DNA of 35,868 nt, taken from contig NZ_JAOCCU010000060.1 in assembly GCF_029840635.1 (NCBI RefSeq), positions 1 through 35,868 on the forward strand, given 5' to 3'. Every line of letters begins with the position of its first letter. Positions within the stretch are counted from its first letter, which is position 1. Made by a program: the position numbers and the translations under genes. Shown in pieces: positions 4,865 to 21,861 of the stretch. This stretch comes from Mitsuaria sp. GD03876 (lineage in GTDB: Bacteria; Pseudomonadota; Gammaproteobacteria; Burkholderiales; Burkholderiaceae_C). The notes beneath the pieces were generated by a model. The model saw nothing but the letters and a program-made list of their open reading frames with translations. It was not told the DNA's origin and made no database searches.

Positions 4865-4885
4865 TCGGGATTTCTCCCGGATGCG

Positions 4886-4912
4886 AAAGCCGCCCCTCGG
4901 GGCGGCTTTTTT
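4886..4912 (+). terminator. Rho-independent terminator of the PEP-CTERM gene
   Basis: GCCGCCCC (4889-4896) pairs with GGGGCGGC (4899-4906), extended by AAA/TTT, and is followed by six T residues. It starts 21 bases after the stop codon. Confidence 0.9.
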
Positions 4913-4962
4913 CATGGGTGGATCGCCTCGAGCTCGCCTCGGATCCGCCTCGATCGGGCAAT

Positions 4963-4990
4963 GAAAAGACCGCCTCCCGGGGCGGTCTCT
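4963..4990 (-). terminator. Rho-independent terminator of the secretion operon
   Basis: On the minus strand AGACCGCC pairs with GGCGGTCT (arms 4967-4974 and 4981-4988, 6-base loop) and is followed by TTTTC. It lies about 25 bases past the TolC-family stop codon, so it ends the glycosyltransferase/secretion operon. Confidence 0.8.
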
Positions 4991-5013
4991 TCAGGGGCGA
5001 GCGGGGCCGAGGG

Positions 5014-6426
5014 TCAGCGCAGCGGCGTCACCACGCCCCGCCCTTGCGACCAGATGATCGCCACGACCTGCTGCGCGTCGTACAGCGCGTTCACGTGGGC
5101 GATGCGCATCGAGTAGTAGTCGCCTTCCGCGGCCATTACGTCGAACAGCGAGCGCTTGCCGAGTTGCTGCCACTGCTGCAGCGTGAAGCCGCGCACCCGC
5201 TCGCTGTTGCGCAGGATGTCCACCAGGCGGCGCGAGCGGTCCAGCGACGACGAGGCCGCCTCGAACATCTCCTGCACGCGGTAGCGCTTGGCGTCGATCG
5301 TCTCGTCGCGCTGCAGCGACGCGGCCTGGGCGCGCCGGCGCGCCGAGGTCAGCGCCGAGTCCGCGCCCGGCTGCACGATCGGGATGTTCACCGTCACGCC
5401 GCCGACCCAGTCGGTCTGCCGCGCCTGCCCCACCGTGGTGTTGCCGCTGACCAGCAGGCTCACGCTGGGCTGCTGCCCGGCGCGCACCGATTCCGCGTAG
5501 CTGCGCTGCGCCTGCGCCTGCGCCGCCGCGGCGGACACGTCCGGCGAGACCATCACGTCGGCCAGCATCTCATTCAGGTCGGGCAATCGCGCCAGCACCG
5601 CGCTCATCGCCGCGCCGCGCGGCAGCTCGTCGCCGACGAAGCGCTTCAGGCGCACCTCCGTCTGGCGCAGCGCCGACGTGGTCTGCTCGTACGACAGGTC
5701 GGCCTGCTGCAGGCTCTTCTGTGCCTGCACCAGCTCGCTGGCGCGGCCGCGGTCGGCCTTGGTGATGATGTCCAGCGCCTCGACCAGGCAGGCCATCTTG
5801 CGCACGTACTGGCTGTAGACCTGCGCCTGGAGCTGGTAGCGGCCGCGGTCCAGCGCCAGCGACACCGTCTGCAGCGCGACCTGCTCCTCGGCGCTCGACT
5901 GCCCGTAGCGCGCGGCGTCGAGCAACTGCGACTTCCATTCGGTCAGCTTGGTGATGCGGCCCGAGTCGTAGATCGGTGCCGTCACGCTCAGCGAGCCGCG
6001 GCCCTGCATGCCGCTGGTGTGCGTGCCGGGACCGTCGCCCGGCAGGATGGTGCCGGTGTTGGCGCCGGTCAGGCCCAGCGTCACCGTGGGCATGCGCTGC
6101 GCCTTGGCTTCCTGGTAGTCGGCCTCGGCCGCCTGCGTCAGCAGCCGGGTCGCGCCCAGCGCCTTGCTGCGGTTGAGCGCGCGGTTGACCAGGTCCTGCA
6201 GCTGCGTGCGCGGGTCCGAGTCGCCGATGTCCAGCAGCGCGGTGTCCTTGGCGGACAGCTGCGCGGGGGGCAAGGTGCGCTCGTCGGAGCAGCGGCTGGG
6301 CGGCGGGTCCTGCGCGAGGGCGGGCGCGCTGAACGCGGCGAGCGCGGTCGCGACGACGGCGGCCCCGGCGGACAGGCGAAAGGTGGAAGTGCGCCGCAAG
6401 CTCGGGCGCCGAGTGGTGTCGGTCAT
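5014..6426 (-). CDS. TolC-family outer-membrane channel of a type I secretion system
   Basis: This is an outer-membrane efflux/secretion duct of 470 residues. A signal peptide with an Arg-rich start and the end SAPALAQD covers about residues 1-39. Two OEP-type repeats follow, each alternating strands and long Ala/Gln/Arg-rich helices. The beta-strand segments are recognisable (TVTLGLTGANTG and SVSLLVSGNTTVG), as are the terminal ERVRGFTLQQWQQLGKRSLFDVMAAEGDYY and NALYDAQQ motifs common in TolC/LapE proteins. It is last in the operon, 167 bases after the adaptor gene, with a hairpin in the gap. Ribosome-binding signals are weak. The start was set at 6426 (MTDTT) because it gives a sensible signal peptide; an ATG at 6510 is also in frame. 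With the ABC and HlyD partners it should form the trans-envelope export channel. Confidence 0.9.
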   Translation of the reverse strand: MTDTTRRPSLRRTSTFRLSAGAAVVATALAAFSAPALAQDPPPSRCSDERTLPPAQLSAKDTALLDIGDSDPRTQLQDLVNRALNRSKALGATRLLTQAAEADYQEAKAQRMPTVTLGLTGANTGTILPGDGPGTHTSGMQGRGSLSVTAPIYDSGRITKLTEWKSQLLDAARYGQSSAEEQVALQTVSLALDRGRYQLQAQVYSQYVRKMACLVEALDIITKADRGRASELVQAQKSLQQADLSYEQTTSALRQTEVRLKRFVGDELPRGAAMSAVLARLPDLNEMLADVMVSPDVSAAAAQAQAQRSYAESVRAGQQPSVSLLVSGNTTVGQARQTDWVGGVTVNIPIVQPGADSALTSARRRAQAASLQRDETIDAKRYRVQEMFEAASSSLDRSRRLVDILRNSERVRGFTLQQWQQLGKRSLFDVMAAEGDYYSMRIAHVNALYDAQQVVAIIWSQGRGVVTPLR

Positions 6427-6542
6427 GGTCACGCGTACTGCAAGCAATTTCCCATGGCCTCTACTGGACCATTCCAGCGGGAAATCGAACCCGCGATAAG
6501 CGGCGCGCAACCGGCCTGTTCGTGACCTTGCGCCGAGCCTTA

Positions 6543-6572
6543 CAAATGAAACCGCCCGCTCGAGGCGGGCAG
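6543..6572 (-). terminator. Possible attenuating hairpin between adaptor and TolC genes
   Basis: On the minus strand GCCCGC and GCGGGC form a stem around CTCGA, followed by GGTTTCATTT. The T-run is broken, so it could be a leaky terminator or an mRNA-stabilising hairpin that lowers TolC expression relative to the upstream genes. Weak support. Confidence 0.35.
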
Positions 6573-6593
6573 CGGATCGGCAGGTGGGCGGTC

Positions 6594-7802
6594 TCAGCGC
6601 TCCCGGAGCGCTTCCTTGGACTTCATCATCGGGCGCAGGAGGTAGCTCAGCACGGAGCGCTCGCCGGTGCGGATGTCCACCATCGCCGTCATGCCGGGGA
6701 TGACCGGCAGCGGCTCACCCTTGGCGCGCAGCGTGTTGTGCTCGGCGGTGATCAGCACCCGGTAGTAGGTGCCCTCGTTGTTCTTCTCGGTCTCGCCCAG
6801 CGCGTCGGGGCTGACGTACTCGATCTTCCCGTGCAGCCCGCCGTTGACGTTGAAGTCGTAGCCGTTGAGCTTGACGATCGCCGACTGGCCGACCTGGATG
6901 TAGCCGATGTCCTTGGGCTTGATGCGCGCCTCCACCAGGATGCGCGGACCGATCGGCACGATCTCCATGATCGGCGAGCCCGAGGTGATGACGCCGCCCA
7001 CGGTGTTCATCTTGATGTTCTTGACCAGCCCCTTGACCGGCGACTTCAGCACCGAGCGCGTCACCGCGTCGCGGCGCACCACGAGCTGCTCGTCGAGCTG
7101 CGCGAGATCCGTCTGCGCCTTGGACAGCTCCGTGCTCGCGTCCTGGCGGAAGCGGCTGATGCGCTCGTTGCGCTGCTGCTGCAGCTCGTTGACCTGGCGC
7201 GTGACCCGCATCACCTCGACGTTGGACATCAGCCCCTTGGACGCCATGTCCTGCGCCAGCTTCTGCTCGGTGGCCAGCAGCCCGATGCTGCGGTTGATGC
7301 TGGAGGTGGCCTCGTCGAGCACGCGGCGGCGGGTGTCGAAGACCTCGTTCTCGCTGTCCACCAGGCGCTGCACGCCCTTGACCTCGTCGGGGAACTTCAG
7401 CGGCACGCCCAGCGCCTCGGCGCGCAGCCGCGCCACCTGCGCCATCAGGCCCAGGCGCTTGGCCTGGCTCTCGTTCTCGGCGGCCTCGGCGCGGGTCGGG
7501 TCGAGCTCGGCCAGTGCCTGTCCGGCCTCGACCTCCTCGCCCTCGTGCACCAGCAGCTTGCCCAGCGTGCCGGATTCGAGGCTGGCGATGACCTGCTCCT
7601 TGCCGTCGGGCACGATGCGCGCGTCGCTGCGGGTGACCTCGTCCACCGTGGCCAGCGACGACCAGACCAGCCCCACCAGCAGCACCGCCGCCATCAGGTA
7701 GAGCGCCCAGACGGCGCGCGGCAGCGGCTCGTCGATCAGCGCCGACTGGACGCTGCCGACGAACAGGCCTTCTTCACGGCTGAGGGTGTGGGACTTGGAC
7801 AT
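6594..7802 (-). CDS. HlyD/LapC-type membrane-fusion (adaptor) protein
   Basis: This 402-residue periplasmic adaptor links the inner-membrane ABC exporter to the TolC channel. A short cytoplasmic N-terminus precedes one membrane segment (about residues 30-52). A biotinyl-lipoyl-like half-motif follows (SLESGTLGKLLVHEGEEVEAGQALAELDP), then long helical hairpins (about 105-245). The second lipoyl half (SPVKGLVKNIKMNTVGGVITSGSPIMEIVP) and a beta-barrel domain (KPKDIGYIQVGQSAIVKLNGYDF) come next. The closing PVIPGMTAMVDIRTGERSVLSYLLRP is the C-terminal signature of type I secretion adaptors. Length agrees with LapC/HlyD proteins. The gene starts 22 bases after the ABC gene in the same operon. Confidence 0.93.
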   Translation of the reverse strand: MSKSHTLSREEGLFVGSVQSALIDEPLPRAVWALYLMAAVLLVGLVWSSLATVDEVTRSDARIVPDGKEQVIASLESGTLGKLLVHEGEEVEAGQALAELDPTRAEAAENESQAKRLGLMAQVARLRAEALGVPLKFPDEVKGVQRLVDSENEVFDTRRRVLDEATSSINRSIGLLATEQKLAQDMASKGLMSNVEVMRVTRQVNELQQQRNERISRFRQDASTELSKAQTDLAQLDEQLVVRRDAVTRSVLKSPVKGLVKNIKMNTVGGVITSGSPIMEIVPIGPRILVEARIKPKDIGYIQVGQSAIVKLNGYDFNVNGGLHGKIEYVSPDALGETEKNNEGTYYRVLITAEHNTLRAKGEPLPVIPGMTAMVDIRTGERSVLSYLLRPMMKSKEALRER

Positions 7803-7824
7803 GACGCGGACTTCGACGCGGGGT

Positions 7825-10212
7825 TCAGACGGACGCGGCGCGGTTCATCGCCTGCGCGGCCGGATGCACGTGGACCGGCGCGCCCTGCGGCGCCTGGCCC
7901 GGCTGGGGCTGTTGTTGCGGCGGCTGCTGGCCCGGCGGGCGGGCGCCCGAGAGCGCGGCCAGCACCTGGTCGCGCGGGCCGTCCATCACCAGGCGGCCGC
8001 TGTCGACGACGACGATGCGCGACACCAGCTCCAGCACCGCCGGGCGGTGCGTGACCATGATCAGCGTGCACGCGCCGGCGGCGTCGCGCAGCTGGCGCAG
8101 GAAGGCGATCTCGGACTGCGCGTCCATCGAGCTGGTGGGCTCGTCCATCAGCAGGATCTGCGGCCGGGTCACCAGGCTGCGCGCCAGCGCGACCAGCTGG
8201 CGCTGGCCGCCCGAGAGCAGCGAGCCCATCTCGCCCACCGGCAGGTCCCAGCCCATCGGATGGCCGGCGACGACGCGGTCCAGGCCGGTCAGCTTGGCCA
8301 CCTCGACCAGGCGCTGGGCGTCGACGTGGCGGCCCATCAGCACGTTGTCGCGCAGCGTGCCGTGGAACAGCCGCGGCTCCTGCGAGACGAAACCGACCTT
8401 GCCGCGGAACTCGGCCGGGTCGACCTGACGCAGGTCGATGCCGTCGATCTCGACGTTGCCCTCGGTCGGCTGGTACAGGCCGGCGAGCATGCGCAGCACC
8501 GTCGACTTGCCGCTGCCGATGCGGCCCAGGATCGCGATGCGCTCGCCGGGCTGGATGCGCAGCGTGACGTTGCGCAGCACCTTGGGCGACTGCGCGTCGC
8601 CCTGCGCCGGATAGGAGAAGCCGACGTCGTTCAGGCCGATGCGGCCGGTGATCTGGTTCAGCGGGACGTAGTTGCGGGTGGAGTCGCGCTCCACCGGGGC
8701 GCTCATCACCGAGTTCAGCGACAGCATCGCCGCGCGGGCGCCCTGGTAGCGCGTGGCCAGGCTGACCAGGCTGTTCAGCGGCACCGTGGCGCGGCCGGCG
8801 AACATCACCGCGCCGATCAGCGCGCCGGCGCTGATGACGCTTTCCTGGATCAGGTAGACGCCCCACACCAGCATGACCAGGTTGATCAGCTGCTGCATCG
8901 TCGTCGAGATGTTCATGCTCCAGCTGGCCATCGTGCGGGCCTTGAGCGCGGACTCGGCGACGATCGCGGTCGAGTGCTCGTAGCGGCGCAGGAAGCGGCC
9001 TTCGGCGCCGGTGGTCTTGAGGTCTTCCAGGCCCTCGAGCGCCTCGACCAGCGTGCCGTGCAGGTCGGCCGCCTCGGTCATGTTGGTGCGCATCGCGCGG
9101 CGCAGGTAGCCCTGGATGCCGAAGCTCATCAGCAGCATCAGCGGGATCGCCGCCATCAGCACCCAGCCCAGCGGGCCGCCGATGATGAAGGTCATCGCCA
9201 CGAACAGCACCACGAACGGCAGGTCCGTCAGGACCGACATCGTGGCCGAGGTGAAGAAGTCGCGCACCACCTCGACCTGGGCCAGGTAGTGGGCATAGGA
9301 ACCGGCCGACGCGGGGCGGTGCTCCATCCGCACGCCCAGCGTCTGGCGGAACAGCTTGGCGCCGACGATCAGGTCGGTCTTGCGGCCGGCCAGGTCGATC
9401 AGGTGGGCGCGCAGCTGGCGCGCGAACAGGTCGAAGACCAGCGCCAGCGCGGCGCCGACGGCCAGCGTCCACAGCGTGACGAAGGCCTGGTGCGGGATGA
9501 CCTTGTCGTAGATGACCGAGGTCACCAGGCCCGACACCATCATGAGCACGTTGCTCAGCAGCGCGGCCAGCATCGCCGAGCGGTAGTACGGGACGAAGCG
9601 CTTGAGCGTGCCGAACAGCCAGTGGGAATCGGCCTGCAGCAGCGGGACCTCGTCCTTGGCGCCGCTCAGCGGCTTGGCCTGCGAGACCTCCTGCGGCGTC
9701 ACCGCCAGGATGAAGCCGCTGTACTCCTGGTCCAGCTCCGCGGCCGGGGCGACGCAGCTGGCAGCCTCGGGGCCGGGGAACACCACCTCGTAGCGCACGC
9801 CGCTGGCGTCGTCGTCCAGGCGGCGCACCAGCACGCAGGCGTCGCCGCCGTTGAGCAGCAGCACCGCCGGCAGCAGCAGCTGGTTGATCTCCTCGATGCC
9901 CTTGCGCAGCAGGCCGGCGTTGTAGCCGGCCTCGCGCATCAGGCGGATCGCCTGGTCGGGGCTGATGGCGCCCTCCACCGGCGCGCCGGCGCGCAGCGAA
10001 TCGGCCGAACGGGCGCGACCATGGTGCTGCGTCAGCCAGGCCAGGCACTGCAGCAGCGGATCGACCGCCGGCAGCTGCGCCAGGTCCGCCAGCGGATCGT
10101 GCGGCTCCTCCGGCATGCCGGGCGCGCGCTGGCCGTCCTCGGCCGCCAGGCGCAGGCCGGGGCGGCGCTCGCGCTGGTCACCGTCGAAGAAGGGGTCGTG
10201 CGGCCGGTTCAT
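7825..10212 (-). CDS. Type I secretion ABC transporter with degenerate C39 domain (LapB/HlyB type)
   Basis: This 795-residue permease-ATPase powers export of an unprocessed protein. The N-terminal region (about 50-170) has the C39-peptidase-like fold. Its DPLLQCLAWLTQHHGR segment (51-66) aligns with the catalytic DCGaaxLxxxxxyyGr of true peptidases, with Pro in place of the catalytic Cys. It should therefore bind substrate without cleaving it, as LapB and HlyB do. A six-helix membrane domain spans about 215-480. The ATPase has Walker A GRIGSGKST (563-571), signature LSGGQRQ (666-672), Walker B ILLMDEP (686-692) and H-loop His722. The C-terminal tail (about 755-790) is unusually Pro/Gln/Ala-rich. 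It begins 19 bases after the glycosyltransferase gene. No RTX or BapA-type substrate gene lies within the window. Confidence 0.94.
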   Translation of the reverse strand: MNRPHDPFFDGDQRERRPGLRLAAEDGQRAPGMPEEPHDPLADLAQLPAVDPLLQCLAWLTQHHGRARSADSLRAGAPVEGAISPDQAIRLMREAGYNAGLLRKGIEEINQLLLPAVLLLNGGDACVLVRRLDDDASGVRYEVVFPGPEAASCVAPAAELDQEYSGFILAVTPQEVSQAKPLSGAKDEVPLLQADSHWLFGTLKRFVPYYRSAMLAALLSNVLMMVSGLVTSVIYDKVIPHQAFVTLWTLAVGAALALVFDLFARQLRAHLIDLAGRKTDLIVGAKLFRQTLGVRMEHRPASAGSYAHYLAQVEVVRDFFTSATMSVLTDLPFVVLFVAMTFIIGGPLGWVLMAAIPLMLLMSFGIQGYLRRAMRTNMTEAADLHGTLVEALEGLEDLKTTGAEGRFLRRYEHSTAIVAESALKARTMASWSMNISTTMQQLINLVMLVWGVYLIQESVISAGALIGAVMFAGRATVPLNSLVSLATRYQGARAAMLSLNSVMSAPVERDSTRNYVPLNQITGRIGLNDVGFSYPAQGDAQSPKVLRNVTLRIQPGERIAILGRIGSGKSTVLRMLAGLYQPTEGNVEIDGIDLRQVDPAEFRGKVGFVSQEPRLFHGTLRDNVLMGRHVDAQRLVEVAKLTGLDRVVAGHPMGWDLPVGEMGSLLSGGQRQLVALARSLVTRPQILLMDEPTSSMDAQSEIAFLRQLRDAAGACTLIMVTHRPAVLELVSRIVVVDSGRLVMDGPRDQVLAALSGARPPGQQPPQQQPQPGQAPQGAPVHVHPAAQAMNRAASV

Positions 10213-10231
10213 TTATCGAATCTTCGTCACT

Positions 10232-12118
10232 TCAGCCGCGATGGGCGAGGGCCAATTGCTCGAATTCGCGCTCGATGTCGCGCACGATGGCCGGCATGTC
10301 GAAAAGTGCGCTGTCGCGGCCCGCGTCGCGCAGGTAGCGCTTGTAGGAGCGGGCCCGGCCGGGATTGAGGCCGATCTGGATCGCGCGCTGGACGTATTCG
10401 TCCACCGAGAAGGTGATCAGGTCCGGCAGGCCGACCGCGGTCAGCAGGCTGCCGCACATGCGGGAGATGTAGCTGCGGCCGGACCGGGTCAGGATCGGCG
10501 TGCCCATCCAGAGGCAGTCGCTGGCGGTGGTGCCGGCGTTGTACGGGAAGGTGTCCAGCACCAGGTCGGGCAGCTGGAAGCGGGCCAGGTAGTCCGGCGG
10601 CGCGACGCGCGGCGCGAAGATCAGCCGCGACGGGTCGATGCCGGCGGCCTCGGCCTCGCGGCGGAGGTTGGCCTTGGCCCACTCGTTGTCCGCCAGCAGC
10701 CACAGCACCGAGTTCGGCACGCCGTCCAGGATGCGCATCCAGGCGCCGAACATCTCGGCGTTCATCTTGTGGTTGTTGTTGAACGAGCAGAAGACGAAGG
10801 CGTCCTCGGGCAGTTCGTACTGCGCGCGGGTGGGGTCGGCGCCGATCTCGCGCTTGCGGTCGCTGACCTGGTAGCAATGCGGCAGGTAAATGGGCTTTTC
10901 GCTGCAGTACGGCAGGTATTCCGGCGGCATCGTGAAGCGATCGGCCAGGATCCAGTCCACGCCGGGCAGCAGCGAGGTCGCCGGCAGGCCCAGGTAGCTG
11001 ACCTGTACCGGCGCCGGCCGGTGCGCCAGGATGTTGGGGCGGGCGCCGCTGGTCAGGCCCTGCAGGTCGACCAGCACGTCGATGCCGGCCTGCGCGATCA
11101 GCTTGGCGGCGGTGGCGTCGTCCAGCGCGTTCAGGCGCCAGACCTTGTCCATCGACATCAGGATCCGCTTGCGCAGCGCGGTGCCGTCCTCGCGGCTCCA
11201 GTCGAAGGCATGGATCTCGAACTTCTCGCGGTCGTGCAGCTCGTAGAGCTCGGCGGTCAGCAAGCCGACGGCGTGCATGCACAGGTCACCGGAGAGGTAA
11301 CCGATCTTGATCTTGCCGCCCTGCTGCCGGGCGGCGACGGAGACCGGGTGCTTCCACAGCGCATCCTTCTGCCTCGTCACCTTCTCGTGGACGAAGCGCT
11401 GGGCGGCGCCCATCTGCAGCGCGGGATCGTCGGTGGCGCTCAGCGTGGCCAGCAAAGAGGTCGCGATCAGCAGCTTGTTGTGCGTAACCTCGCCGAACGG
11501 CTGGTAAACCGGCCACTTGCACTGCTTCTGGCGGATGTGCACGTAATGCTGCATCACGTCCGTCTGCTCGGGATCGAGCGTCAGGCTGCGCACCATCAGG
11601 GCCTCGGACTCCTCGTAGCGGCGTTGCAGCTCGAGCAGCCGGGCGGCGTTGTTGAAGGCATGCGTGCGCAGGCCGGTGGTGTCGGCGCCCAGCGCCTCGA
11701 TCGGGCCCTGGCCGTCGTGGACCTCGCGCCAGGCGGCCAGCGCCTCGTCGACGCGGCCCAGGTGCTCGAGCTGGTGGCCCAGGTTCAGCCGGGCCTGGGC
11801 GAAGGTCGGGCTGATCGCCAGCGCCTGGCGATAAACCTGCTCGGCGCGCTCGTGCTGCTGGATGTTGCCCAGCACGGTGCCCCAGTTGTAGAGCGCCACC
11901 AGGCGCGCCGCCGGCGCCTGGTCGGCGCGGCTCAGCCAGGTCTCGTACAGATGCGCGGCCGCGTCGCCCAGGTTCTGGGCCTGGAAGAAGTTGCCCCGGT
12001 CCATCAGTTCCGGCAGCGGGAGCGTGCCCTCGCGGGCGCGGGTCAGCAGCTGCTCCCATTCCGGGGCCAGCGGGGCGGGAACGCTCAAGTTCGGCATGCT
12101 GGGGCGGGCGATGTCCAT
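10232..12118 (-). CDS. GT41 (OGT/SPINDLY-like) TPR glycosyltransferase
   Basis: This is a cytoplasmic 628-residue protein of the O-GlcNAc-transferase-like GT41 group. Residues about 40-200 form TPR-type helical repeats (for example HERAEQVYRQALAISPTFAQ). The catalytic half follows, with GYLSGDLCMHAVG holding a candidate active-site His282, then the DVLVDLQGLTSGARPNILAHRPAPVQVSYLG block and FCSFNNNHK with Lys451. The nucleotide-sugar signature DTFPYNAGTTASDCLWMG is at 522-539. In characterised GT41 enzymes these His and Lys residues contact the UDP-sugar. The start was set at 12118, nine bases after AGGAAG; a GTG at 12139 is possible. It is the first gene of the secretion operon, so the exported protein is a plausible target. 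Flagellin is an alternative, given the sigma-28 promoter. The sugar donor is unknown. Confidence 0.9.
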   Translation of the reverse strand: MDIARPSMPNLSVPAPLAPEWEQLLTRAREGTLPLPELMDRGNFFQAQNLGDAAAHLYETWLSRADQAPAARLVALYNWGTVLGNIQQHERAEQVYRQALAISPTFAQARLNLGHQLEHLGRVDEALAAWREVHDGQGPIEALGADTTGLRTHAFNNAARLLELQRRYEESEALMVRSLTLDPEQTDVMQHYVHIRQKQCKWPVYQPFGEVTHNKLLIATSLLATLSATDDPALQMGAAQRFVHEKVTRQKDALWKHPVSVAARQQGGKIKIGYLSGDLCMHAVGLLTAELYELHDREKFEIHAFDWSREDGTALRKRILMSMDKVWRLNALDDATAAKLIAQAGIDVLVDLQGLTSGARPNILAHRPAPVQVSYLGLPATSLLPGVDWILADRFTMPPEYLPYCSEKPIYLPHCYQVSDRKREIGADPTRAQYELPEDAFVFCSFNNNHKMNAEMFGAWMRILDGVPNSVLWLLADNEWAKANLRREAEAAGIDPSRLIFAPRVAPPDYLARFQLPDLVLDTFPYNAGTTASDCLWMGTPILTRSGRSYISRMCGSLLTAVGLPDLITFSVDEYVQRAIQIGLNPGRARSYKRYLRDAGRDSALFDMPAIVRDIEREFEQLALAHRG

Positions 12119-16071: not shown

Positions 16072-16554
16072 ATGGATAAATCCTTGCTCCAGCGACAGGT
16101 GCTGGAACGGCTCGCCGAAGACCTGCTGCAGGTCGAACAGGCAGCGCGCACGGCGCATGAAACCGCGACGCACGAAGAGAACATCGCCGAGAACAAGTAC
16201 GACACCCTGGGTCTCGAAGCCGCCTACCTGGCCACCGGCCAGGCTCGTCGCGCCGAGGCCATCCGCCAGGCGATGGCCAATTGGCGCCAGTTCCGTCCGC
16301 CGGCCTACGACGCCGCGAGAGGAATTCAGCTCGGCGCGCTGGTCTGCCTGGTCGACGCCGACGACAGGCAGCAACAACTCTTTCTCGGCCCGGATGGGGG
16401 CAGCATGCAGTTGGTGAGCGGTGCCCAGCTCGTTCAGGTCATCAGCGGCGATGCGCCGTTGGGCAGGGCCCTTCTGGGCAAATGCGAAGGCGACGAGGTG
16501 TCGATACAGGTCGCTTCGATCCGACAGCGGTTTGAGGTGATGTGGGTTCATTGA
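16072..16554 (+). CDS. GreA/GreB-like protein
   Basis: This 160-residue soluble protein resembles a small Gre-factor relative common in betaproteobacteria. The N-terminal half (about 1-75) is a helical hairpin with the acidic stretch HEENIAENKYDTLGLEAAYLATGQARRAEAI, comparable to the coiled coil that Gre factors insert into the RNA polymerase secondary channel. The C-terminal half (about 85-158) is an FKBP-like beta domain (IQLGALVCLVDAD ... GRALLGKCEGDEVSIQV) matching the GreA C-terminal fold. Transcript-cleavage activity is not proven. The gene starts 12 bases after the chromate-transporter genes and overlaps the end-to-start junction with the glutathione transferase gene. Confidence 0.75.
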   Translation: MDKSLLQRQVLERLAEDLLQVEQAARTAHETATHEENIAENKYDTLGLEAAYLATGQARRAEAIRQAMANWRQFRPPAYDAARGIQLGALVCLVDADDRQQQLFLGPDGGSMQLVSGAQLVQVISGDAPLGRALLGKCEGDEVSIQVASIRQRFEVMWVH

Positions 16555-17195
16555 GCCAGTTGCCGAGGCTCTACACCTTTCGTCGCTGCCCCTACGCGAT
16601 GCGCGCACGGATGGCGATGCTGCAGGCCGGGAGAGACTTCGAGGCGGTGGAGGTGAGCCTGCGCGACAAGCCCGCAAGCCTGCTGGCCCTGTCTCCCAAG
16701 GGGACGGTGCCTGTCCTGCAGTTGCCCGAGGGCAGCGTGATCGAGGAGAGCTGGGACATCATGCGTTGGGCGCTGGATGAGCCCGATTTGCAGGGCTGGT
16801 GGGCGCGCGCGCAGTCGCCTGAGAACCTGAACTTGGTGAAGCGCAATGACGGCGACTTCAAGCGTCACCTGGACCGCTGGAAGTACCCCCAGCGCTACGC
16901 CAATGAGACTCTCGCGCCGGACGCCCACCGCGACAGTGCGGTCGATGTGCTTCTGCGACCGCTGGAGACACGACTGCACGGCGCGCCCTACCTGGGCGGC
17001 GCCACGCCATGCGCCACCGACCTCGCCGTGCTGCCCTTCGTGCGCCAGTTCGCCGCGGTGGACCCGGACTGGTTTGCCGCGCTGAACTTGCCGTCCGTAC
17101 GGTCCTGGCTGAACGGCTGGCTCATCCACCCGCTGTTCACGGCTTGCATGCACAAGCTGCCCGTTGAAGGTGTGAATCGCTTTCCTCCGCTCTGA
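16551..17195 (+). CDS. Glutathione S-transferase family protein
   Basis: This is a cytosolic thioredoxin-fold transferase of 214 residues. The N-terminal domain opens LPRLYTFRRCPYAMRARMAM, where the CPYA motif is the omega/beta-type Cys active site. The cis-Pro region KGTVPVLQLPEG and the glutathione-contacting VIEESWDIM follow. The C-terminal helical domain includes YLGGATPCATDLAVLPFVRQFA, the usual Asp-containing N-capping box. The start is probably TTG at 16551: an excellent GAGGTGAT lies nine bases before it, and the resulting MSQLPRLYTF is the usual family start. A GTG at 16542 has no room for a ribosome-binding site. It overlaps the upstream stop codon. Substrate unknown. Confidence 0.88.
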   Translation: MSQLPRLYTFRRCPYAMRARMAMLQAGRDFEAVEVSLRDKPASLLALSPKGTVPVLQLPEGSVIEESWDIMRWALDEPDLQGWWARAQSPENLNLVKRNDGDFKRHLDRWKYPQRYANETLAPDAHRDSAVDVLLRPLETRLHGAPYLGGATPCATDLAVLPFVRQFAAVDPDWFAALNLPSVRSWLNGWLIHPLFTACMHKLPVEGVNRFPPL

Positions 17196-17647
17196 CCGTT
17201 GCCTGGCTGGTGCTGGACGGCGGAGGCTGGGGCGTTCGGGTTCGTTTGAGGCCAGACGATTCTTCGCTTGGCGGCAGGAGTCGCGAGAGGCGACTGCATC
17301 CTCGAGGGCGCCCTTTGTTCCCTGGTGTTGCCCCTTTGCATCGATTCTTGACCGCGAGTCGCTCACCAGTTAGCACAGGACAGAGTTGGCAGCTCGATGA
17401 CTTGACTTTGTCGATGAGCATAAAAGCGCAGCACAAATCATCCAACCGATTAATTGATATTAGTTGGTGCCACCACCAAGAGCCGGGGCGCCTTAAAACA
17501 TATCCTCATATAAATACAGATGTTCATTGGAAGAACCCATTCTTCCAATCCCTGAGAAAATCGAGGGACTTCAAGTTTGCGTGAGTTGCGTTTGCGCCGG
17601 TGATAGCTTTCACCCGCCCCAAGTCGGGGTGCAACCGTAGACCTACC
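17196..17647. other. Lower-GC intergenic region upstream of the leader-peptide locus
   Basis: This is 452 bases without a convincing gene. From about 17395 the sequence becomes AT-rich, unlike the rest of the window. It holds a TATAAAT -10-like box (17509-17515) with no good -35, and a perfect palindrome (17527-17548) placed where a repressor or activator could act. The last 60 bases contain a CCCC/GGGG hairpin near the start codon. It probably carries the promoter of the three-gene operon that follows. Confidence 0.5.
17527..17548. repeat. Perfect palindrome, candidate operator
   Basis: TTGGAAGAA and TTCTTCCAA form 9-base perfect arms around CCCA. It is not followed by a T-run, so a protein-binding site is more likely than a terminator. 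It lies about 12 bases downstream of a TATAAAT box and 100 bases before the leader-peptide gene. Confidence 0.5.
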
Positions 17648-17995
17648 ATGCGCAAGATCTTCATTACCAACCAAAGCTCTCCAGGCGCCTCTCGACCCGG
17701 AATAGTCGAGCTGACGCCCGATGAAATCGACCTCGTTTACGGGGGGCAGTTCCAGTTCAACGACAGGCAGGGAAACATCTATTCCTCAGCGGTCATCAAT
17801 GGCATGACCCACATCATTTTCCCTGGGGGAATGCGAGTCGCCATGAGCCTGAGCGAAGATGGCGACACCTTCACCATGTCGTACAACGGGGACACCGTCG
17901 AAATGGAGCATATGGGCGGTGAGGTGTATGACATCAGCCTGAACGGCATCGGCATGCTATGCGGAGTCAGCAATCCATTCCTCTTCCCGCGATGA
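17648..17995 (+). CDS. Small protein with double-glycine-type leader, possible RiPP-like precursor
   Basis: This 115-residue protein is not recognised as a whole. Residues 1-33 look like a precursor leader ending ELTPDEIDLVYGG, with the LxxxEhxxVxGG pattern of double-glycine leaders that C39 peptidases cut (Gly32-Gly33). The remaining 82 residues are Gly/Ser/Met/Asp/Asn-rich, beta-like and hydrophilic (DGDTFTMSYNGDTVEMEHMGG), with one Cys near the end (MLCGVSNPF). The C-terminal FLFPR has no obvious recognition site. The start at 17648 has only a poor Shine-Dalgarno, and GTG at 17600 is an alternative. The downstream oxygenase gene begins about ten bases after the stop, so co-expression is likely. 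The gene lies in a lower-GC island. Alternatives are a secreted effector or a bacteriocin-like protein. The peptide role is inferred from the leader and neighbour only. Confidence 0.65.
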   Translation: MRKIFITNQSSPGASRPGIVELTPDEIDLVYGGQFQFNDRQGNIYSSAVINGMTHIIFPGGMRVAMSLSEDGDTFTMSYNGDTVEMEHMGGEVYDISLNGIGMLCGVSNPFLFPR

Positions 17996-18005
17996 GGTGA
18001 AGCCG

Positions 18006-19139
18006 ATGATCGACCTCGGAACTCATGGCAAGGATTTTCGAGACAAGTATCTCGAACGCCGTAGCCTTTTGGTTAGAAATGGTGTCGGGTCCCCACCGGG
18101 ATTACGGGAAGTTGACAGTTTCCTGGATCACTCCGACCCGTCACCTCCTCACATTCGGGTGTTCAAGGAAGGCCCCGTAGACGAGTCAAGGTATACGGAG
18201 GAAATTGACGACCTTGGCGTATGGCGGCGGCGCCTGATGAAGGGCCAACTCCATCAGTTGATATTGGAAGGCGCCACCGTGGCGCTCAACCGGATCGACC
18301 GTCATTCCTGGCCCATACGCAGTCTTTGCCACGAGATATCGCGCCTCACAGGAGAACGGGCAACGGCAAATGCCTACTTGGCAGTCAGCGGCACTGGCTC
18401 ATTCGGAAAGCACTGGGACACCCACGACGTCTTCGCAGTGCAGCTTCGAGGACGAAAGAGGTGGAGGCTGTTCGCCCCCACCTTGCCGCTGCCGCTGGCA
18501 ACGCAGACAAGCTTGCGCCACAAGACCGAATGCCCGATCACCCCGGTTTTCGATGAGATCCTGGAGACAGGTGACTTACTCTATATCCCGCGCGGCTGGT
18601 GGCATCTCGCCGAACCCATCGGGGAGTTGTCCTTTCACATCGCAATTGGGACACACACAATTCGTGTCATCGATTATCTCCTCTGGGCTTGCGGACGCGT
18701 ACTGCCTGAACAGTTGGAAGCCCGTCGGGCCGCCGGCGCGAACTCTTCTGCTCCACCCGCATTCGCTTCGCACCTGTTGAACGAGATGAGCGAAAAGGTA
18801 GCCTCCAAAGATCTTTGGGGGGAATTTCTTGAATTCTTGCATTCCCGCCAGAGAAATGAAGTCCCATCCTCCATGGAAGATCTTCAATCTTTGCAAAATG
18901 GCGAGATTCCGATTGAATATCGCGTGAGACTGAACACCTACCACAACACTTCTCGATCAATAAATGGTTACCAGATCGAAAGCGACAACTCAAGCAGACT
19001 GATCTTGAAGGAGATCAAAACCAGTCAACCAATCTCCATCGCCAAGCTGCTTGAAAAATTTCCAAGCCAAGAGTCCTCCGAGGTTCTTGTAACATTGGCG
19101 AACCTCGCCAGACTGGAGATATTGGAAGTCATGGCATGA
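18006..19139 (+). CDS. JmjC/cupin-type Fe(II)/2-oxoglutarate oxygenase
   Basis: This 377-residue soluble protein is of the cupin_4/JmjC group, related to the ribosomal oxygenases YcfD/RoxA. The iron-binding facial triad is visible: His136 and Asp138 in FGKHWDTHDVF, and distal His200 in PRGWWHLAEP. The downstream QLRGRKRWRLF block is the typical second strand after the HxD motif. A helical C-terminal region (about 230-377) includes a winged-helix-like end (SIAKLLEKFPSQESSEVLVTLANLARLEILEV), as in RoxA proteins. Such enzymes hydroxylate protein side chains. The start at 18006 lies five bases after GAGGTGA; a GTG at 17997 is less likely. It is placed directly between a leader-bearing small protein and a secreted protein, so one of these is a plausible substrate. 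It is not a close YcfD copy by context. Confidence 0.85.
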   Translation: MIDLGTHGKDFRDKYLERRSLLVRNGVGSPPGLREVDSFLDHSDPSPPHIRVFKEGPVDESRYTEEIDDLGVWRRRLMKGQLHQLILEGATVALNRIDRHSWPIRSLCHEISRLTGERATANAYLAVSGTGSFGKHWDTHDVFAVQLRGRKRWRLFAPTLPLPLATQTSLRHKTECPITPVFDEILETGDLLYIPRGWWHLAEPIGELSFHIAIGTHTIRVIDYLLWACGRVLPEQLEARRAAGANSSAPPAFASHLLNEMSEKVASKDLWGEFLEFLHSRQRNEVPSSMEDLQSLQNGEIPIEYRVRLNTYHNTSRSINGYQIESDNSSRLILKEIKTSQPISIAKLLEKFPSQESSEVLVTLANLARLEILEVMA

Positions 19140-19567
19140 GCAAGGCTCGATGGAAAAAGTTCCTGCCCACCATCGCTCTGATTGCGGCGACGACAGGGGC
19201 AAGCTTTCCTTCCCAAGCGGATATCGCCGCCCTGGCCAACCCTGAAATTGCCCTCGCATTCATGGAGGATTTCCCGGAACTTGCTCAGATTCAAGGCTGG
19301 GAAGGAATTCCATTTCCGAAGGTGCCAGACAATGAAATTGGACCTCTTCTGGCATCAAGGAAGATCACTCCGGTGCCATTTCGATCAACCTTCGGGCAAC
19401 CATTCCCGAACAGTTACCTGATCTATACGATTCCCTGTCCTTCGAACTTTCTCGCCGACTGCCATTTCCTCGGAGTCATGCAAGCGCTAGGCATGCCAGT
19501 GCAGAAGTTCTTCGGACCAATTGCGTTCAGGTATCGACCGGGACGGTGGGATGACCCAATGAAGTAG
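19136..19567 (+). CDS. Small secreted protein of unknown function
   Basis: This 143-residue protein is not recognised. It has a good signal peptide: basic start SKARWKK, a hydrophobic core, and a probable cut after SQA near residue 28. The mature part is about 115 residues, with two cysteines (Cys101 and Cys109) that could form a disulfide in the periplasm. It ends RYRPGRWDDPMK. It starts inside the stop codon of the oxygenase gene (ATGA at 19136), so it is translationally coupled to it and belongs to the same unit. Possible roles are an immunity protein, a chaperone or the modified product, but the sequence does not show which. Base composition matches the lower-GC neighbours. A terminator follows directly. 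Confidence 0.7.
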   Translation: MSKARWKKFLPTIALIAATTGASFPSQADIAALANPEIALAFMEDFPELAQIQGWEGIPFPKVPDNEIGPLLASRKITPVPFRSTFGQPFPNSYLIYTIPCPSNFLADCHFLGVMQALGMPVQKFFGPIAFRYRPGRWDDPMK

Positions 19568-19581
19568 CAAGACATGAAAGG

Positions 19582-19609
19582 AAATACGGGACGCCTTGGC
19601 GTCCCGTTT
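19582..19609. terminator. Bidirectional terminator between convergent genes
   Basis: ACGGGACGCC (19586-19595) pairs perfectly with GGCGTCCCGT (19598-19607), flanked by AAA before and TTT after. It lies 15 bases after the secreted-protein stop and 56 bases past the stop of the convergent propeller gene, so it can serve both. Confidence 0.75.
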
Positions 19610-19664
19610 CACAGTCGAGGCACGAAGGGCCTCTGGCTACGCTGGCGGGTCCTCTGGCGGCCCG

Positions 19665-21056
19665 CTATCCGATGCACTGCCCGCTGCGCCCGCCGTGGCT
19701 CGACAACGCCACACCGGGCAGTTCCAAGGCGTAGTGCAGCGACACCAACTGCCACCCTTGCGGTCCCATCTGCCACTGCGTGCTGTTGACGCCGACGTAG
19801 TCCGGCGTGGCCGTCGCGGGGTCGCTGCGCGACTCCACCACGCTGTAGACATCGGCATGCCCCGCGTATTGGCGCAGTTCCCTGTGGATCTCGCATTCAT
19901 GCAAGGCGCGCGGACCCGCCTTGCCGACCGCCGCCAGGAAGGCCTCGGCGGACCAGCTGCGGGCCTGCAGCTGGCTGACCGCTGCCTGGAGCTGCTGGCT
20001 CCACACCTTGGCATCCGGGTGCAGCAGCGCGCGCATGCGCGTCACGTCCGCGGGCTGGCCCGCCGCATGGCCGAAGGACTGCCAGAGCGCGCTGACCTGC
20101 GACGTCAGCGACGCGCGGCTGAACGCCTGCGCCTCATCGCCGAGCGCCTCCAGCAGCGCCGGCCAGCTGACGCGATAGACCTGCGACAGCCCGGGCGCAA
20201 GACCCGGCACCGGCCGCGTCGACGCGAACAGCAACCACCGTCCGTCGGCGGTCACCGACGGCGTGAACTCGAAGCCCGGGCCGTTGATCGGCGCCGGCAG
20301 CCGCAGCGCGGGGCCGTACTGCTCACCGACGCGTTCCGCCAGATAGAGGTCAGCGCCTCCCTCGCTCCCGGCGCGGCTGCTCCACCACAGCGCATGCCGC
20401 CCATCCGGGCTCAACGTGAAGTCGCTGTTGGCCGGTCCCTCGTTGACCGGAGACGGGAGCGCGCGCGGCGGGAGGTTCTCCTCGTCGTCGACGCGGTAGA
20501 TGGCGAGCTTTCCCGGACCGCCGGCGCGCAGCGAGGCGAAGTACAGCCGCCTGCCGAATCGCTCCGGACCGAGCTCGGTCCGCGTGCTCTGCAGCGGATC
20601 GGCCAGCCGCCGGGGCGGCGTCCACACACCGGCGTCGAGGTCCGTCAATGTGGCCTCGAACAGATCGAGGTCGTCGCCGCGATCGGCGCCGCCCGCGTCG
20701 GATCGATCGGAAATGAAGGTCAGGGTCTTGCCGTCCCCCGACAGATGCGGATCGGAGTCGCGCCAGCGGGCATCGGAGAAAGGCAGCAACTCAGGCGCGC
20801 GCCAGGCGCCTGTCGAGTCCTGCCGCTGCCAGTAGATCCGCGACTGCTTGAAGCCCGCGGCGGAGCGCGCGAAGACGCGGAGGGTCCGGGTTTCCTGCAG
20901 GTTGTAGGTCTGCAGCTGCGGGTCGTCGCCGGGCAACTCGACGCGCTCGACGATCAGCCCGGCCGCGCCTGCGGACGCCGCCGTGGCGGCGGAAGACAGT
21001 CCGTGGAGGGCGCCCAGAAGCAGCAGGGCCAGGGGGGAGAACGCGCTAGCAGGCAT
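19665..21056 (-). CDS. Secreted TolB-like (PD40) beta-propeller protein with C-terminal NTF2-like domain
   Basis: This 463-residue exported protein has a signal peptide (about 1-27). The middle (about 60-310) carries repeated PD40/TolB-type blades: DPHLSGDGKTLTFISDRS, SDFTLSPDGRHALWWSSRAG and TPSVTADGRWLLFASTRP, all with the DG..L.F.S pattern. A helical linker follows. The C-terminal 120 residues (about 340-455), with GQPADVTRMRALLHPDAKVW and YVGVNSTQWQMGPQGWQLVSLHYALEL, resemble an NTF2/SnoaL-like fold used in secreted sensor or ligand-binding domains. TolB itself has a different N-terminal domain and no NTF2 part, and no tol genes are near, so this is not TolB. It is probably periplasmic or surface-exposed. 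Ligand unknown. It is separated from upp by 172 bases. Confidence 0.75.
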   Translation of the reverse strand: MPASAFSPLALLLLGALHGLSSAATAASAGAAGLIVERVELPGDDPQLQTYNLQETRTLRVFARSAAGFKQSRIYWQRQDSTGAWRAPELLPFSDARWRDSDPHLSGDGKTLTFISDRSDAGGADRGDDLDLFEATLTDLDAGVWTPPRRLADPLQSTRTELGPERFGRRLYFASLRAGGPGKLAIYRVDDEENLPPRALPSPVNEGPANSDFTLSPDGRHALWWSSRAGSEGGADLYLAERVGEQYGPALRLPAPINGPGFEFTPSVTADGRWLLFASTRPVPGLAPGLSQVYRVSWPALLEALGDEAQAFSRASLTSQVSALWQSFGHAAGQPADVTRMRALLHPDAKVWSQQLQAAVSQLQARSWSAEAFLAAVGKAGPRALHECEIHRELRQYAGHADVYSVVESRSDPATATPDYVGVNSTQWQMGPQGWQLVSLHYALELPGVALSSHGGRSGQCIG

Positions 21057-21228
21057 GACGGGCGGCGTGAAGTCCGAGGTGCGCGGATGCTAGAAGCGGT
21101 GCGCGGGCCGGATAGCCGCCGTGCGATGAAGCCGGCGAATCGGGGGATCAAGTCAGGCGCGACCGGACAGGCGCGGAACGCCTGATGGCACGACCATCGA
21201 GCGCGGGTGAACGCGCCGACGCCCAGGC

Positions 21229-21861
21229 TCAGACGTCCTTCGTCCCGAAGATCTTGTCCCCGGCGTCGCCGAGGCCGGGAATGATGTAGCCGTTCTCGTT
21301 GAGGTGCGAATCGATCGCCGCGGTCCAGCAGCGCACGTCCGGGTGCGCCTTGTTCAGCGCCGCCACGCCTTCCGGCGCCGCCACCAGCACCAGCGCGCGG
21401 ATGTCCTTGCAGCCACGGTTCTTCAGCAGGTCCACCGTCGCGATCATCGAGCCCGCCGTCGCCAGCATCGGATCCACGATCAGCGCCGTGCGCTGGTCCA
21501 GCTGGCCCACGAACTTCTCGAAGTAGTTCACCGGCTGCAGCGTCTCGTGGTCGCGCGCCAGGCCGACCACGCTCACCTTCGCGTTGGGCATCATGTCCAG
21601 CACGCCGTCCAGCATGCCCAGCCCCGCCCGCAGGATCGGCACCACCGTCACCTTGCGGCCGGCGATCTGGTCGATCTCCACCGGCCCGCACCAGCCGTCG
21701 ATCGTCGTCTTCTCCAGGGGGAAGTCCGCCGTCGCCTCGTAGGCCAGCAGCCGCGCGACCTCGCCGGTCAGCTCGCGGAACTTCTTGGTGGACATGTCCC
21801 CTTCCCGCATCAGGCCGATCTTGTGCTTGACGAGGGGATGCGTGACTTCGATGACGGCCAT
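21229..21861 (-). CDS. upp: Uracil phosphoribosyltransferase
   Basis: This salvage enzyme (210 residues, normal length) converts uracil and PRPP to UMP and pyrophosphate. Characteristic features are the N-terminal [12 protein letters not shown], the [13 protein letters not shown] block, and the PRPP loop [10 protein letters not shown] (129-138). The C-terminal uracil-binding [15 protein letters not shown] holds GLGDAGD at 196-202. The GTP-regulated UPRTase family shares these. The gene is on the minus strand after rlmB, 97 bases apart, with GC-rich inverted repeats in between. It may be co-transcribed or have its own promoter. The call is certain at family level. Confidence 0.97.

What the first reader, a model, noticed from the sequence alone, without database searches (positions are those of the whole stretch)
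17648..19567. Candidate undescribed oxygenase-modified peptide (RiPP-like) locus
Three tightly packed genes encode a 115-residue protein with a leader ending ELTPDEIDLVYGG, a JmjC/cupin oxygenase with an intact HxD...H iron site, and a 143-residue secreted protein with two Cys. Start and stop codons are about ten bases apart or overlapping. JmjC enzymes hydroxylate protein side chains, so the small protein (or the secreted one) is the natural candidate substrate. No known RiPP class is recognised, and no dedicated transporter or peptidase is adjacent.
Basis: partly seen in the sequence, partly recalled or inferred. Interest (0 to 1): 0.75.

Follow-up and report, generated by a model that had tools for sequence, protein, structure and literature searches.

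The report
Oxygenase-linked microcin-like peptide locus
A small peptide with an export leader is encoded beside an iron oxygenase whose relatives often sit next to bacteriocin-like peptides in Gram-negative bacteria, and a short acidic motif that these peptides share suggests where the oxygenase may modify them.

Summary
The three genes are real: a compact, GC-poor group in a variable spot of the genome. P0001 (17648-17995) has a double-glycine leader. P0002 (probably ATG 18006, to 19139) is an intact JmjC Fe(II)/2-oxoglutarate oxygenase. P0003 (19136-19567) looks exported.

P0002 has the ribosomal-oxygenase fold but lies outside that clade, and the genome has a separate ribosomal-type oxygenase. 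Many relatives sit beside GG-leader peptides, often with HlyD and C39-peptidase exporters. 'Cupins' in A. baumannii mca-type, E. coli mct-type and Moraxella pLQ510 microcin clusters are homologues.

Peptide motifs follow the oxygenase clade: C-terminal DGD with one group, mostly G[NT][DN]Y with the other (17 and 26 peptides, no crossing); oxygenase columns 125 and 143 switch with them. P0001 has an internal SEDGD. GG peptides at exporter loci without JmjC have no DGD (0 of 23).

Best reading: P0002 hydroxylates P0001, perhaps at Asp in SEDGD, and a C39 exporter encoded elsewhere cleaves after GG and secretes it. Modification, site, export and activity are inferred. Weak points: no homologue of P0001 was found, its motif is internal, no exporter is adjacent, and P0002's nearest clade shows no GG peptides.

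The parts
17648..17995 (+). P0001: 115-aa precursor-like small protein, 33-residue leader ending GG, 82-residue core
   Evidence: leader 10/13 identical to a GG peptide beside a C39 exporter in the same genome; no match in the 298 other family genomes searched, in plasmids or in viral contigs
17648..17746 (+). leader of P0001, residues 1-33, ending ELTPDEIDLVYGG (predicted C39 cleavage after GG)
   Evidence: sequence
17852..17866 (+). SEDGD (residues 69-73 of P0001): proposed modification site, like the EDGD(G) motif of peptides linked to related oxygenases, but internal
   Evidence: EDGD in 0.16% of shuffles of the P0001 core; 17 of 55 peptides of related loci carry [EDAVN]DGD
18006..19139 (+). 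P0002: JmjC (PF08007) Fe(II)/2-oxoglutarate oxygenase with C-terminal winged-helix-like domain; alternative GTG start at 17997
18411..18419 (+). codons of His139-Trp140-Asp141 (iron ligands His and Asp); His143, two residues on, is Arg in clade B
18603..18605 (+). codon of His203, predicted third iron ligand
19136..19567 (+). P0003: 143-aa predicted exported protein with two conserved Cys; role unknown (immunity or accessory)
   Evidence: in the genomes searched its only relative is one paralogue in the same genome
19586..19607 (.). 9-bp inverted repeat just after P0003, possible terminator
   Evidence: number of such sites not above shuffles; z -2.9

Best explanation
The locus is a small, probably laterally acquired RiPP-like (modified microcin-like) unit. 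P0001 is the precursor. While the leader is still on, the JmjC oxygenase P0002 uses Fe(II), O2 and 2-oxoglutarate to add oxygen (+16 Da) to the core, most likely beta-hydroxylation of an Asp (or a nearby Asn) in or next to SEDGD. A peptidase-containing ABC exporter encoded elsewhere in the genome (C23, or C1) then cuts after GG and secretes the peptide. P0003 is an exported helper or immunity protein of the same group. Shown here: gene order, intact iron site, GG leader, C39 exporters in trans, the family's repeated neighbourhood with GG peptides, and the covariation of peptide motif with oxygenase clade and two oxygenase columns. Inferred: that P0002 acts on P0001, the residue, the chemistry, the export route and an antibacterial function. 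Rough odds: P0001 is the substrate 0.65; modification within SEDGD 0.35-0.4; export by a C39 exporter in trans 0.55; bacteriocin-like function 0.5.
For: Tight spacing and overlap of the three genes. Iron residues intact and invariant. Of 89 loci with an oxygenase relative, 36 gave 55 GG-leader peptides on the same strand within 4.5 kb; 43 of 55 carry one of two motifs (17 DGD-type, 26 G-x-x-Y-type, of which 21 strictly G[NT][DN]Y; 12 neither) against a shuffled mean of 4.7, maximum 12. No peptide has both, and the motifs do not cross oxygenase groups. Oxygenase columns 125 and 143 are N and H in 20 of 20 aligned sequences of clades A and C, and S (14 of 15) and R (15 of 15) in clade B; P0002 has N and H. 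Control: 22 C39-exporter loci, none with the JmjC, gave 23 GG peptides: 0 with DGD, 2 with the loose and 0 with the strict second motif. The genome has a second such unit (JmjC, 89-aa hydrophobic protein, GG peptide ending VDGDE). A homologous cupin stands in an E. coli plasmid with the gene order of the mct cluster, in which the cupin gene mctC is required for activity (PMC8853679 passages). Other JmjC/cupin proteins hydroxylate RiPP precursors: BipG on ornithine (PMC12707348 section 9), PbsQ +15.99 Da (PMC12257519 passage).
Against: No homologue of P0001 was found, so leader conservation against core variation cannot be tested for it. Its motif is internal, whereas all 17 counted DGD motifs start within the last six residues. 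P0002 groups with clade C (96/87; no starred set), in which no convincing GG peptide was found; a position with clade A is merely not rejected (p-AU 0.234). 53 of 89 relative loci gave no peptide, and six of the 19 rows of clade A in the tree (L015, L017, L018, L021, L037, L122) have none counted. The motif patterns were written after the peptides had been seen, and peptides within a clade are kin, so the Fisher values overstate independence. Clade B is one clade, so the enzyme switch is one event. No exporter is adjacent. In A. baumannii, mcaB alone protected cells (PMC10333792), which suggests immunity rather than, or besides, modification.
Confidence: 0.55

Rival explanations
1. P0002 is an immunity protein: it protects the producer, by binding the peptide or modifying a cell target, and does not mature P0001.
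For: mcaB alone protected a delta-mcc A. baumannii mutant (PMC10333792 passages); a homologous cupin-HlyD-C39 exporter unit with a GA-leader peptide was seen here (L118).
Against: mctC is required for Mcc1229 activity while the mctDE region gave immunity (PMC8853679 passages). An intact, invariant iron site and the motif/column covariation point to catalysis on the peptide. Small hydrophobic, immunity-like proteins stand beside the peptide in the paralogous locus.
Confidence: 0.15
2. P0002 is a ribosomal or other housekeeping protein oxygenase that happens to lie beside a small gene.
For: Best solved structures are NO66, MINA53 and YcfD, over nearly the whole chain including the winged helix.
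Against: A separate ribosomal-type oxygenase is in the genome (C15, 131.6 bits to PF08007), and seven such rows form their own clade, 100/100, without P0002. The window gene is rare: 6 of 398 other sampled genomes of the order have a match at E<=1e-20. It lies in a GC-poor, variable spot.
Confidence: 0.08
3. P0002 modifies the exported protein P0003, or a separate protein or metabolite as may be the case in clade C, and P0001 is a signal, inhibitor or unrelated GG peptide.
For: P0002 is sister to clade C in the fuller tree; clade C neighbours that were scanned include amidases and an asparaginase-like protein. The P0003 start overlaps the P0002 stop.
Against: P0003's paralogue has no JmjC among the genes of the 13-kb stretch read. 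P0003 has no DGD, whereas P0001 does. Clades A and B both have GG peptides.
Confidence: 0.17
4. P0001 is a degenerate or truncated relic and the locus no longer makes a product.
For: No homologue; a weak profile match to beta-type GG peptides that go on to a C-terminal DGD (hhalign probability 16%, E 0.0016).
Against: Open frames for all three genes, tight coupling, GG leader and intact iron site.
Confidence: 0.08

Closest known systems
mcaABCD microcin Mcc17978 locus of Acinetobacter baumannii (PMC10333792, passages read)
   Same: GA-leader peptide next to a cupin gene; an A. baumannii plasmid unit of the same gene order has a cupin homologous to P0002 (26.8%, E 5e-36).
   Different: HlyD and C39 exporter adjacent; peptide of the G-N-D-Y type; oxygenase in clade B; cupin proposed as immunity. 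That the plasmid unit is the same as the published chromosomal one was not checked by sequence.
mctABC microcin Mcc1229 of Escherichia coli (PMC8853679, passages read)
   Same: A plasmid cluster with the published order (ABC transporter, cupin, DUF4440, DUF2164) has a cupin homologous to P0002 (29.7% over residues 80-217, E 1e-9); mctC is required for activity.
   Different: More distant oxygenase; peptide described as Cys-rich at its C-terminus; exporter adjacent. Identity with mct rests on gene order and annotation only.
Moraxella catarrhalis mcb bacteriocin plasmid pLQ510 (PMC2761928, passages read)
   Same: A cupin homologous to P0002 lies upstream of the HlyD and C39-exporter genes.
   Different: 'cupin' and 'JmjC' do not occur in the paper's main text; exporter adjacent; the peptide beyond the exporter has neither motif; the cupin frame may run across the record start.
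BipG (biphenomycin; PMC12707348 section 9) and PbsQ (PMC12257519 passage)
   Same: JmjC/cupin oxygenases that hydroxylate a RiPP precursor.
   Different: Orn is the residue for BipG; quite different clusters; no sequence comparison made here.
Ribosomal oxygenases NO66, MINA53, YcfD
   Different: YcfD-type rows form a separate clade; different gene neighbourhood.
JmjC (PF08007) fused to RRE-like folds (PMC12710340, abstract, section 6 and part of the references read)
   Same: The paper notes bacterial PF08007 homologues in RiPP-like contexts; P0002's C-terminus has strands followed by three helices.
   Different: No peptide motif, clade or target is given in the section read; PF05402 is not among the Pfam matches of P0002.

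Membership tests
cupin/JmjC-linked GG-leader microcin loci (mca/mct type) | small precursor with double-glycine-type leader | tested here: met
   P0001 ELTPDEIDLVYGG; 10/13 identical to a GG peptide between HlyD and a C39 exporter in the same genome
cupin/JmjC-linked GG-leader microcin loci (mca/mct type) | adjacent homologous JmjC/cupin with intact iron site | tested here: met
cupin/JmjC-linked GG-leader microcin loci (mca/mct type) | HlyD and C39-peptidase ABC exporter in the same locus | tested here: not met
   none adjacent; C39 exporters on C1 and C23; the T1SS at 5014-10212 has a C39-like domain without the catalytic Cys
cupin/JmjC-linked GG-leader microcin loci (mca/mct type) | DGD or G-N/T-D/N-Y motif in the peptide (a regularity found here, not a published definition) | tested here: inconclusive
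   SEDGD present but internal (residues 69-73); 12 of 55 peptides of related loci have neither motif
cupin/JmjC-linked GG-leader microcin loci (mca/mct type) | antibacterial activity of the product | not testable with these tools
   needs the purified or secreted peptide
RiPP | ribosomal precursor modified by a co-encoded enzyme | not testable with these tools
   needs mass spectrometry
ribosomal oxygenase (ROX) | JmjC + helical + winged-helix fold | tested here: met
ribosomal oxygenase (ROX) | membership of the YcfD-type clade | tested here: not met
   ROX rows form one clade 100/100 without P0002; NO66 and MINA53 were not in the tree
RRE-containing RiPP enzyme | PqqD-like RRE domain | tested here: inconclusive
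   PF05402 not among matches at E<=10; order of strands and helices is compatible but the whole chain also matches ROX with its winged helix

The most novel reading that the evidence does not exclude
A widespread but unrecognised class of oxygen-modified microcins: JmjC oxygenases of Gram-negative bacteria hydroxylate a short Asp/Asn-Gly motif (DGD or G-N/T-D/N-Y) in GG-leader peptides, with residues 125 and 143 of the oxygenase setting which motif is used. The window is a compact member with an internal motif, a core unlike the others and export in trans.
Probability: 0.38. Interest if true: 0.8.

Novelty: new variant of a known kind. Interest (0 to 1): 0.62.

Why it matters
Cupin genes in microcin clusters have been proposed as immunity proteins or left unassigned. 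If they are peptide oxygenases with a recognisable target motif, a set of class II microcin-like peptides in Acinetobacter, Moraxella, Neisseria, Methylomonas, Pseudomonas and Burkholderiales would in fact be modified, with a testable site for most. That would bear on why such a peptide made without its oxygenase can be inactive (as in mctC mutants), and it gives genome mining a two-part signature: oxygenase clade plus peptide motif.

Tried and rejected
Homologues of P0001 were sought in 299 family genomes (own only), viral contigs (none) and plasmids (none). A first narrow leader pattern missed nearly all GG peptides; neighbourhood reading found them. A first gene caller was misled by antisense frames and was replaced; both are home-made and can miss genes. 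The structure of P0001 from one sequence was poor (mean pLDDT 49.3): it shows strands on either side of SEDGD and is not used as evidence. A profile link of P0001 to beta-type GG peptides was weak. Placing P0002 inside clade A was neither supported nor rejected. P0003 as substrate was set aside: its only relative, a paralogue, has no JmjC in the stretch read, and it lacks the motif. RRE membership was not shown. The list of folds does not exclude families that it does not show.

Not in print, as far as searched: (JmjC + bacteriocin + double-glycine: 0 papers); for most of these only the listings were seen. Only open-licence PMC papers are held, so this is a limited statement. The N. gonorrhoeae bacteriocin-like island paper (PMC11798529) has no 'JmjC', 'cupin' or 'oxygenase' in its main text (passages).

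Full report
What is there. Three genes lie on the + strand between a glutathione S-transferase-like gene (16542-17195) and, on the opposite strand, a WD40-like beta-propeller gene (19665-21056). P0001, 17648-17995, is 115 aa with a 33-residue leader ending ELTPDEIDLVYGG. P0002 runs to 19139; GTG 17997 is possible, but relatives begin at the Met that corresponds to ATG 18006. P0003, 19136-19567, overlaps the stop of P0002 and has a signal-peptide-like start, judged by eye. A 9-bp hairpin at 19586-19607 follows (z -2.9); the terminator scan lists it on the minus strand and finds no more such sites than in shuffles, so a shared terminator is only possible. The stretch has 49-59% GC against 65-73% around it. 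Six 9-kb regions of genus relatives around the GST gene were read: none has the JmjC; in two (L208, L210) the GST gene and the gene at 21229-21861 are both kept with unrelated genes between them. So this is a variable spot. P0003 was found in none of 15 other genus genomes.

The neighbourhood of relatives. The single genome scan gave 80 loci, the best of 103 confirmed. Many have small peptides with leaders such as MRELTITEMEIVSGG beside the oxygenase, often with HlyD and C39-ABC exporter genes (read by eye, not counted): Acinetobacter L004 and L009, Methylomonas L005, L007, L008 and L011, Variovorax L006, Moraxella, Neisseria, Pseudomonas, Vreelandella. The window's genome has a second unit on C2: an oxygenase 38% identical to P0002, an overlapping 89-aa hydrophobic protein and a GG peptide ending VDGDE.

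The motif. One filter (leader pattern, start and ribosome-site score, coding score, same strand, within 4.5 kb) was run on 89 loci: 36 gave 55 peptides and 53 gave none (repeated). Of 55, 17 (12 loci) carry [EDAVN]DGD, and all 17 start within the last six residues; 26 (19 loci) carry a loose G-x-x-Y pattern, 21 of them strictly G[NT][DN]Y; 12 carry neither; none carries both. Shuffling the cores gives a mean of 4.7 and a maximum of 12 peptides with a motif in 300 rounds. DGD peptides stand only with oxygenases 36-49% identical to P0002 (best tblastn segment), the others only with 27-34%. Not in the count: both L003 peptides (Duganella, ending DEDGDEG and DEDGDEGS) and the L026 peptide (NDDGDG), which fail the filter's score or leader length, and the L040 peptide (EDGDSYIC), whose leader the pattern does not match. 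The 12 without a motif are five of L022, one of L043 and one of L036 (Moraxella), both of L035 (N. gonorrhoeae), the one of pLQ510 beyond the mcb exporter genes, and two that look like chance hits (L002, L055). In Moraxella L028, L029, L046 and L047 the second motif stands near the GG site instead of at the C-terminus. The patterns were written after the peptides had been read, and peptides within a clade are kin, so the Fisher values (1e-8 against controls; 2e-12 for no crossing) are descriptive only. Among 17 clade-A peptides the first 15 residues are on average 56% identical and the core without its last nine residues 32% (131 pairs between loci).

Control. One search listed 23 strong C39-exporter places in 16 of 120 sampled genomes; 20 of the 21 outside this genome were fetched with flanks (G365 was left out; L180 is only 4.8 kb) and read together with the two of this genome. 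None of the 22 has the JmjC; 14 gave 23 GG peptides under the same filter: 0 with DGD, 2 with the loose second motif, 0 with the strict one.

The oxygenase follows the motif. Nine clade-A and eleven clade-C oxygenases were compared with fifteen of clade B; six aligned rows of neither set (L015, L017, L021, L037, L033, L051) were left aside. With thresholds of 85% and 70%, three columns separate them: 40 (D 15 of 20 against N 15 of 15), 125 (N 20 of 20 against S 14 of 15) and 143 (H 20 of 20 against R 15 of 15). P0002 has D, N and H. Position 143 is two residues from the iron-binding Asp; 125 lies on the strand before it; distances were not measured. Clade B is one clade (99/100), so this is one evolutionary switch, not many, and clade C shares N/H without a known peptide.

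P0001 in this light. It contains SEDGD at residues 69-73. EDGD appears in 0.16% of shuffles of its core, the looser pattern in 0.8%. But the motif is internal, and no homologue of P0001 was found. P0002 itself falls beside clade C (96/87), whose scanned neighbours include amidases and an asparaginase-like protein and in which no convincing GG peptide was seen. In a reduced tree of 54 rows that join is not starred, and holding P0002 with clade A costs 4.9 log units, not rejected (p-AU 0.234). Six of 19 rows of clade A (L015, L017, L018, L021, L037, L122) have no counted GG peptide, nor have the two unlabelled rows within clade B (L049, L151). So motif and columns 125/143 link P0002 to clade A; the tree leaves it open.

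Export. No exporter is adjacent. The genome has two strong C39 matches, C1 and C23, and four weaker ones, one of them in the window. Between HlyD and the exporter on C23 stands a peptide with leader MQELTQDEIDQVHGG, 10 of 13 residues as in P0001. Both exporters keep the Cys motif (AECGLAC); the T1SS at 5014-10212 does not. Export in trans is therefore possible but unproven.

P0003. One paralogue, 39% identical, is in the same genome beside genes that look like a type II secretion or pilus cluster (by eye); none in 398 other sampled genomes of the order. Both Cys are kept. It may be immunity or accessory; nothing decides.

What is known. The A. baumannii mca locus has a 'cupin-like' gene that protects cells when expressed alone (PMC10333792, passages). 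The E. coli mct cluster has one that is required for activity, with immunity in mctDE (PMC8853679, passages). Homologues of P0002 were found here in an A. baumannii plasmid unit of the mca order, in an E. coli plasmid with the mct gene order, and on Moraxella pLQ510 upstream of the mcb exporter genes, where the paper's main text has neither 'cupin' nor 'JmjC'. JmjC/cupin enzymes hydroxylate RiPP precursors in biphenomycin-type pathways. PF08007 proteins with RRE-like folds, and bacterial homologues in RiPP-like contexts, are noted in PMC12710340 (section 6). I found no paper that names the motifs or the covariation (mostly listings).

Verdict. It works like an oxygenase-matured microcin unit; it is not filed as a full member of the mca/mct type because the adjacent exporter is missing and activity is untested. 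New variant of a known kind. The strongest new point is general: peptide motif and oxygenase change together, giving a definite site to test.

Noticed in passing
G000 C2, locus L112:3913-5831 (minus strand): A second JmjC/GG-peptide unit in the same genome: oxygenase (38% to P0002), overlapping 89-aa hydrophobic protein, GG peptide ending VDGDE, and another small hydrophobic protein overlapping its end.
   Followed up: partly
L119 (pLQ510) 39-797: A cupin/JmjC gene lies upstream of the Moraxella mcbAB exporter genes; the original paper's main text does not mention 'cupin' or 'JmjC'.
   Followed up: partly
L002, L010, L012-L014, L016, L019, L020, L023, L027, L030, L044: Clade C oxygenases without convincing GG peptides; scanned neighbours include amidases (PF01425) in L012, L013, L014 and L019 and an asparaginase-like protein in L019, with RND-like efflux genes in some (by eye): perhaps a different substrate.
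   Followed up: partly
L114-L116, L121, L122: More distant JmjC genes in other RiPP-like or tailoring contexts: a radical-SAM-like gene (L114, by eye), a nitrile-hydratase-leader-like small protein (L115, by eye), a short GG-leader protein (L116), YcaO/TfuA/ThiF/MFS (L121, annotation), O-methyltransferase/MFS (L122, annotation).
   Followed up: no
window 17195-21229: Variable spot in the genus: in two of six relatives both flanks are kept with unrelated cargo between them.
   Followed up: partly
window 5014-12118 (minus): T1SS (OEP, HlyD, ABC with a C39-like domain lacking the catalytic Cys) followed by a TPR/GT41-like glycosyltransferase.
   Followed up: partly
L028, L029, L046, L047 (Moraxella): The G-S/N-N/D-Y motif stands near the GG site instead of at the C-terminus, showing that its position can vary.
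   Followed up: no
L003:4098-5933 (Duganella): Two GG peptides ending DEDGDEGS and DEDGDEG with a radical SAM gene (PF04055) next to a JmjC: possibly a doubly modified peptide.
   Followed up: no
L123 (A. baumannii plasmid) 4501-6319: The cupin match covers only part of the query and an ISAba10 transposase gene follows within it, so this copy looks interrupted (annotation).
   Followed up: no
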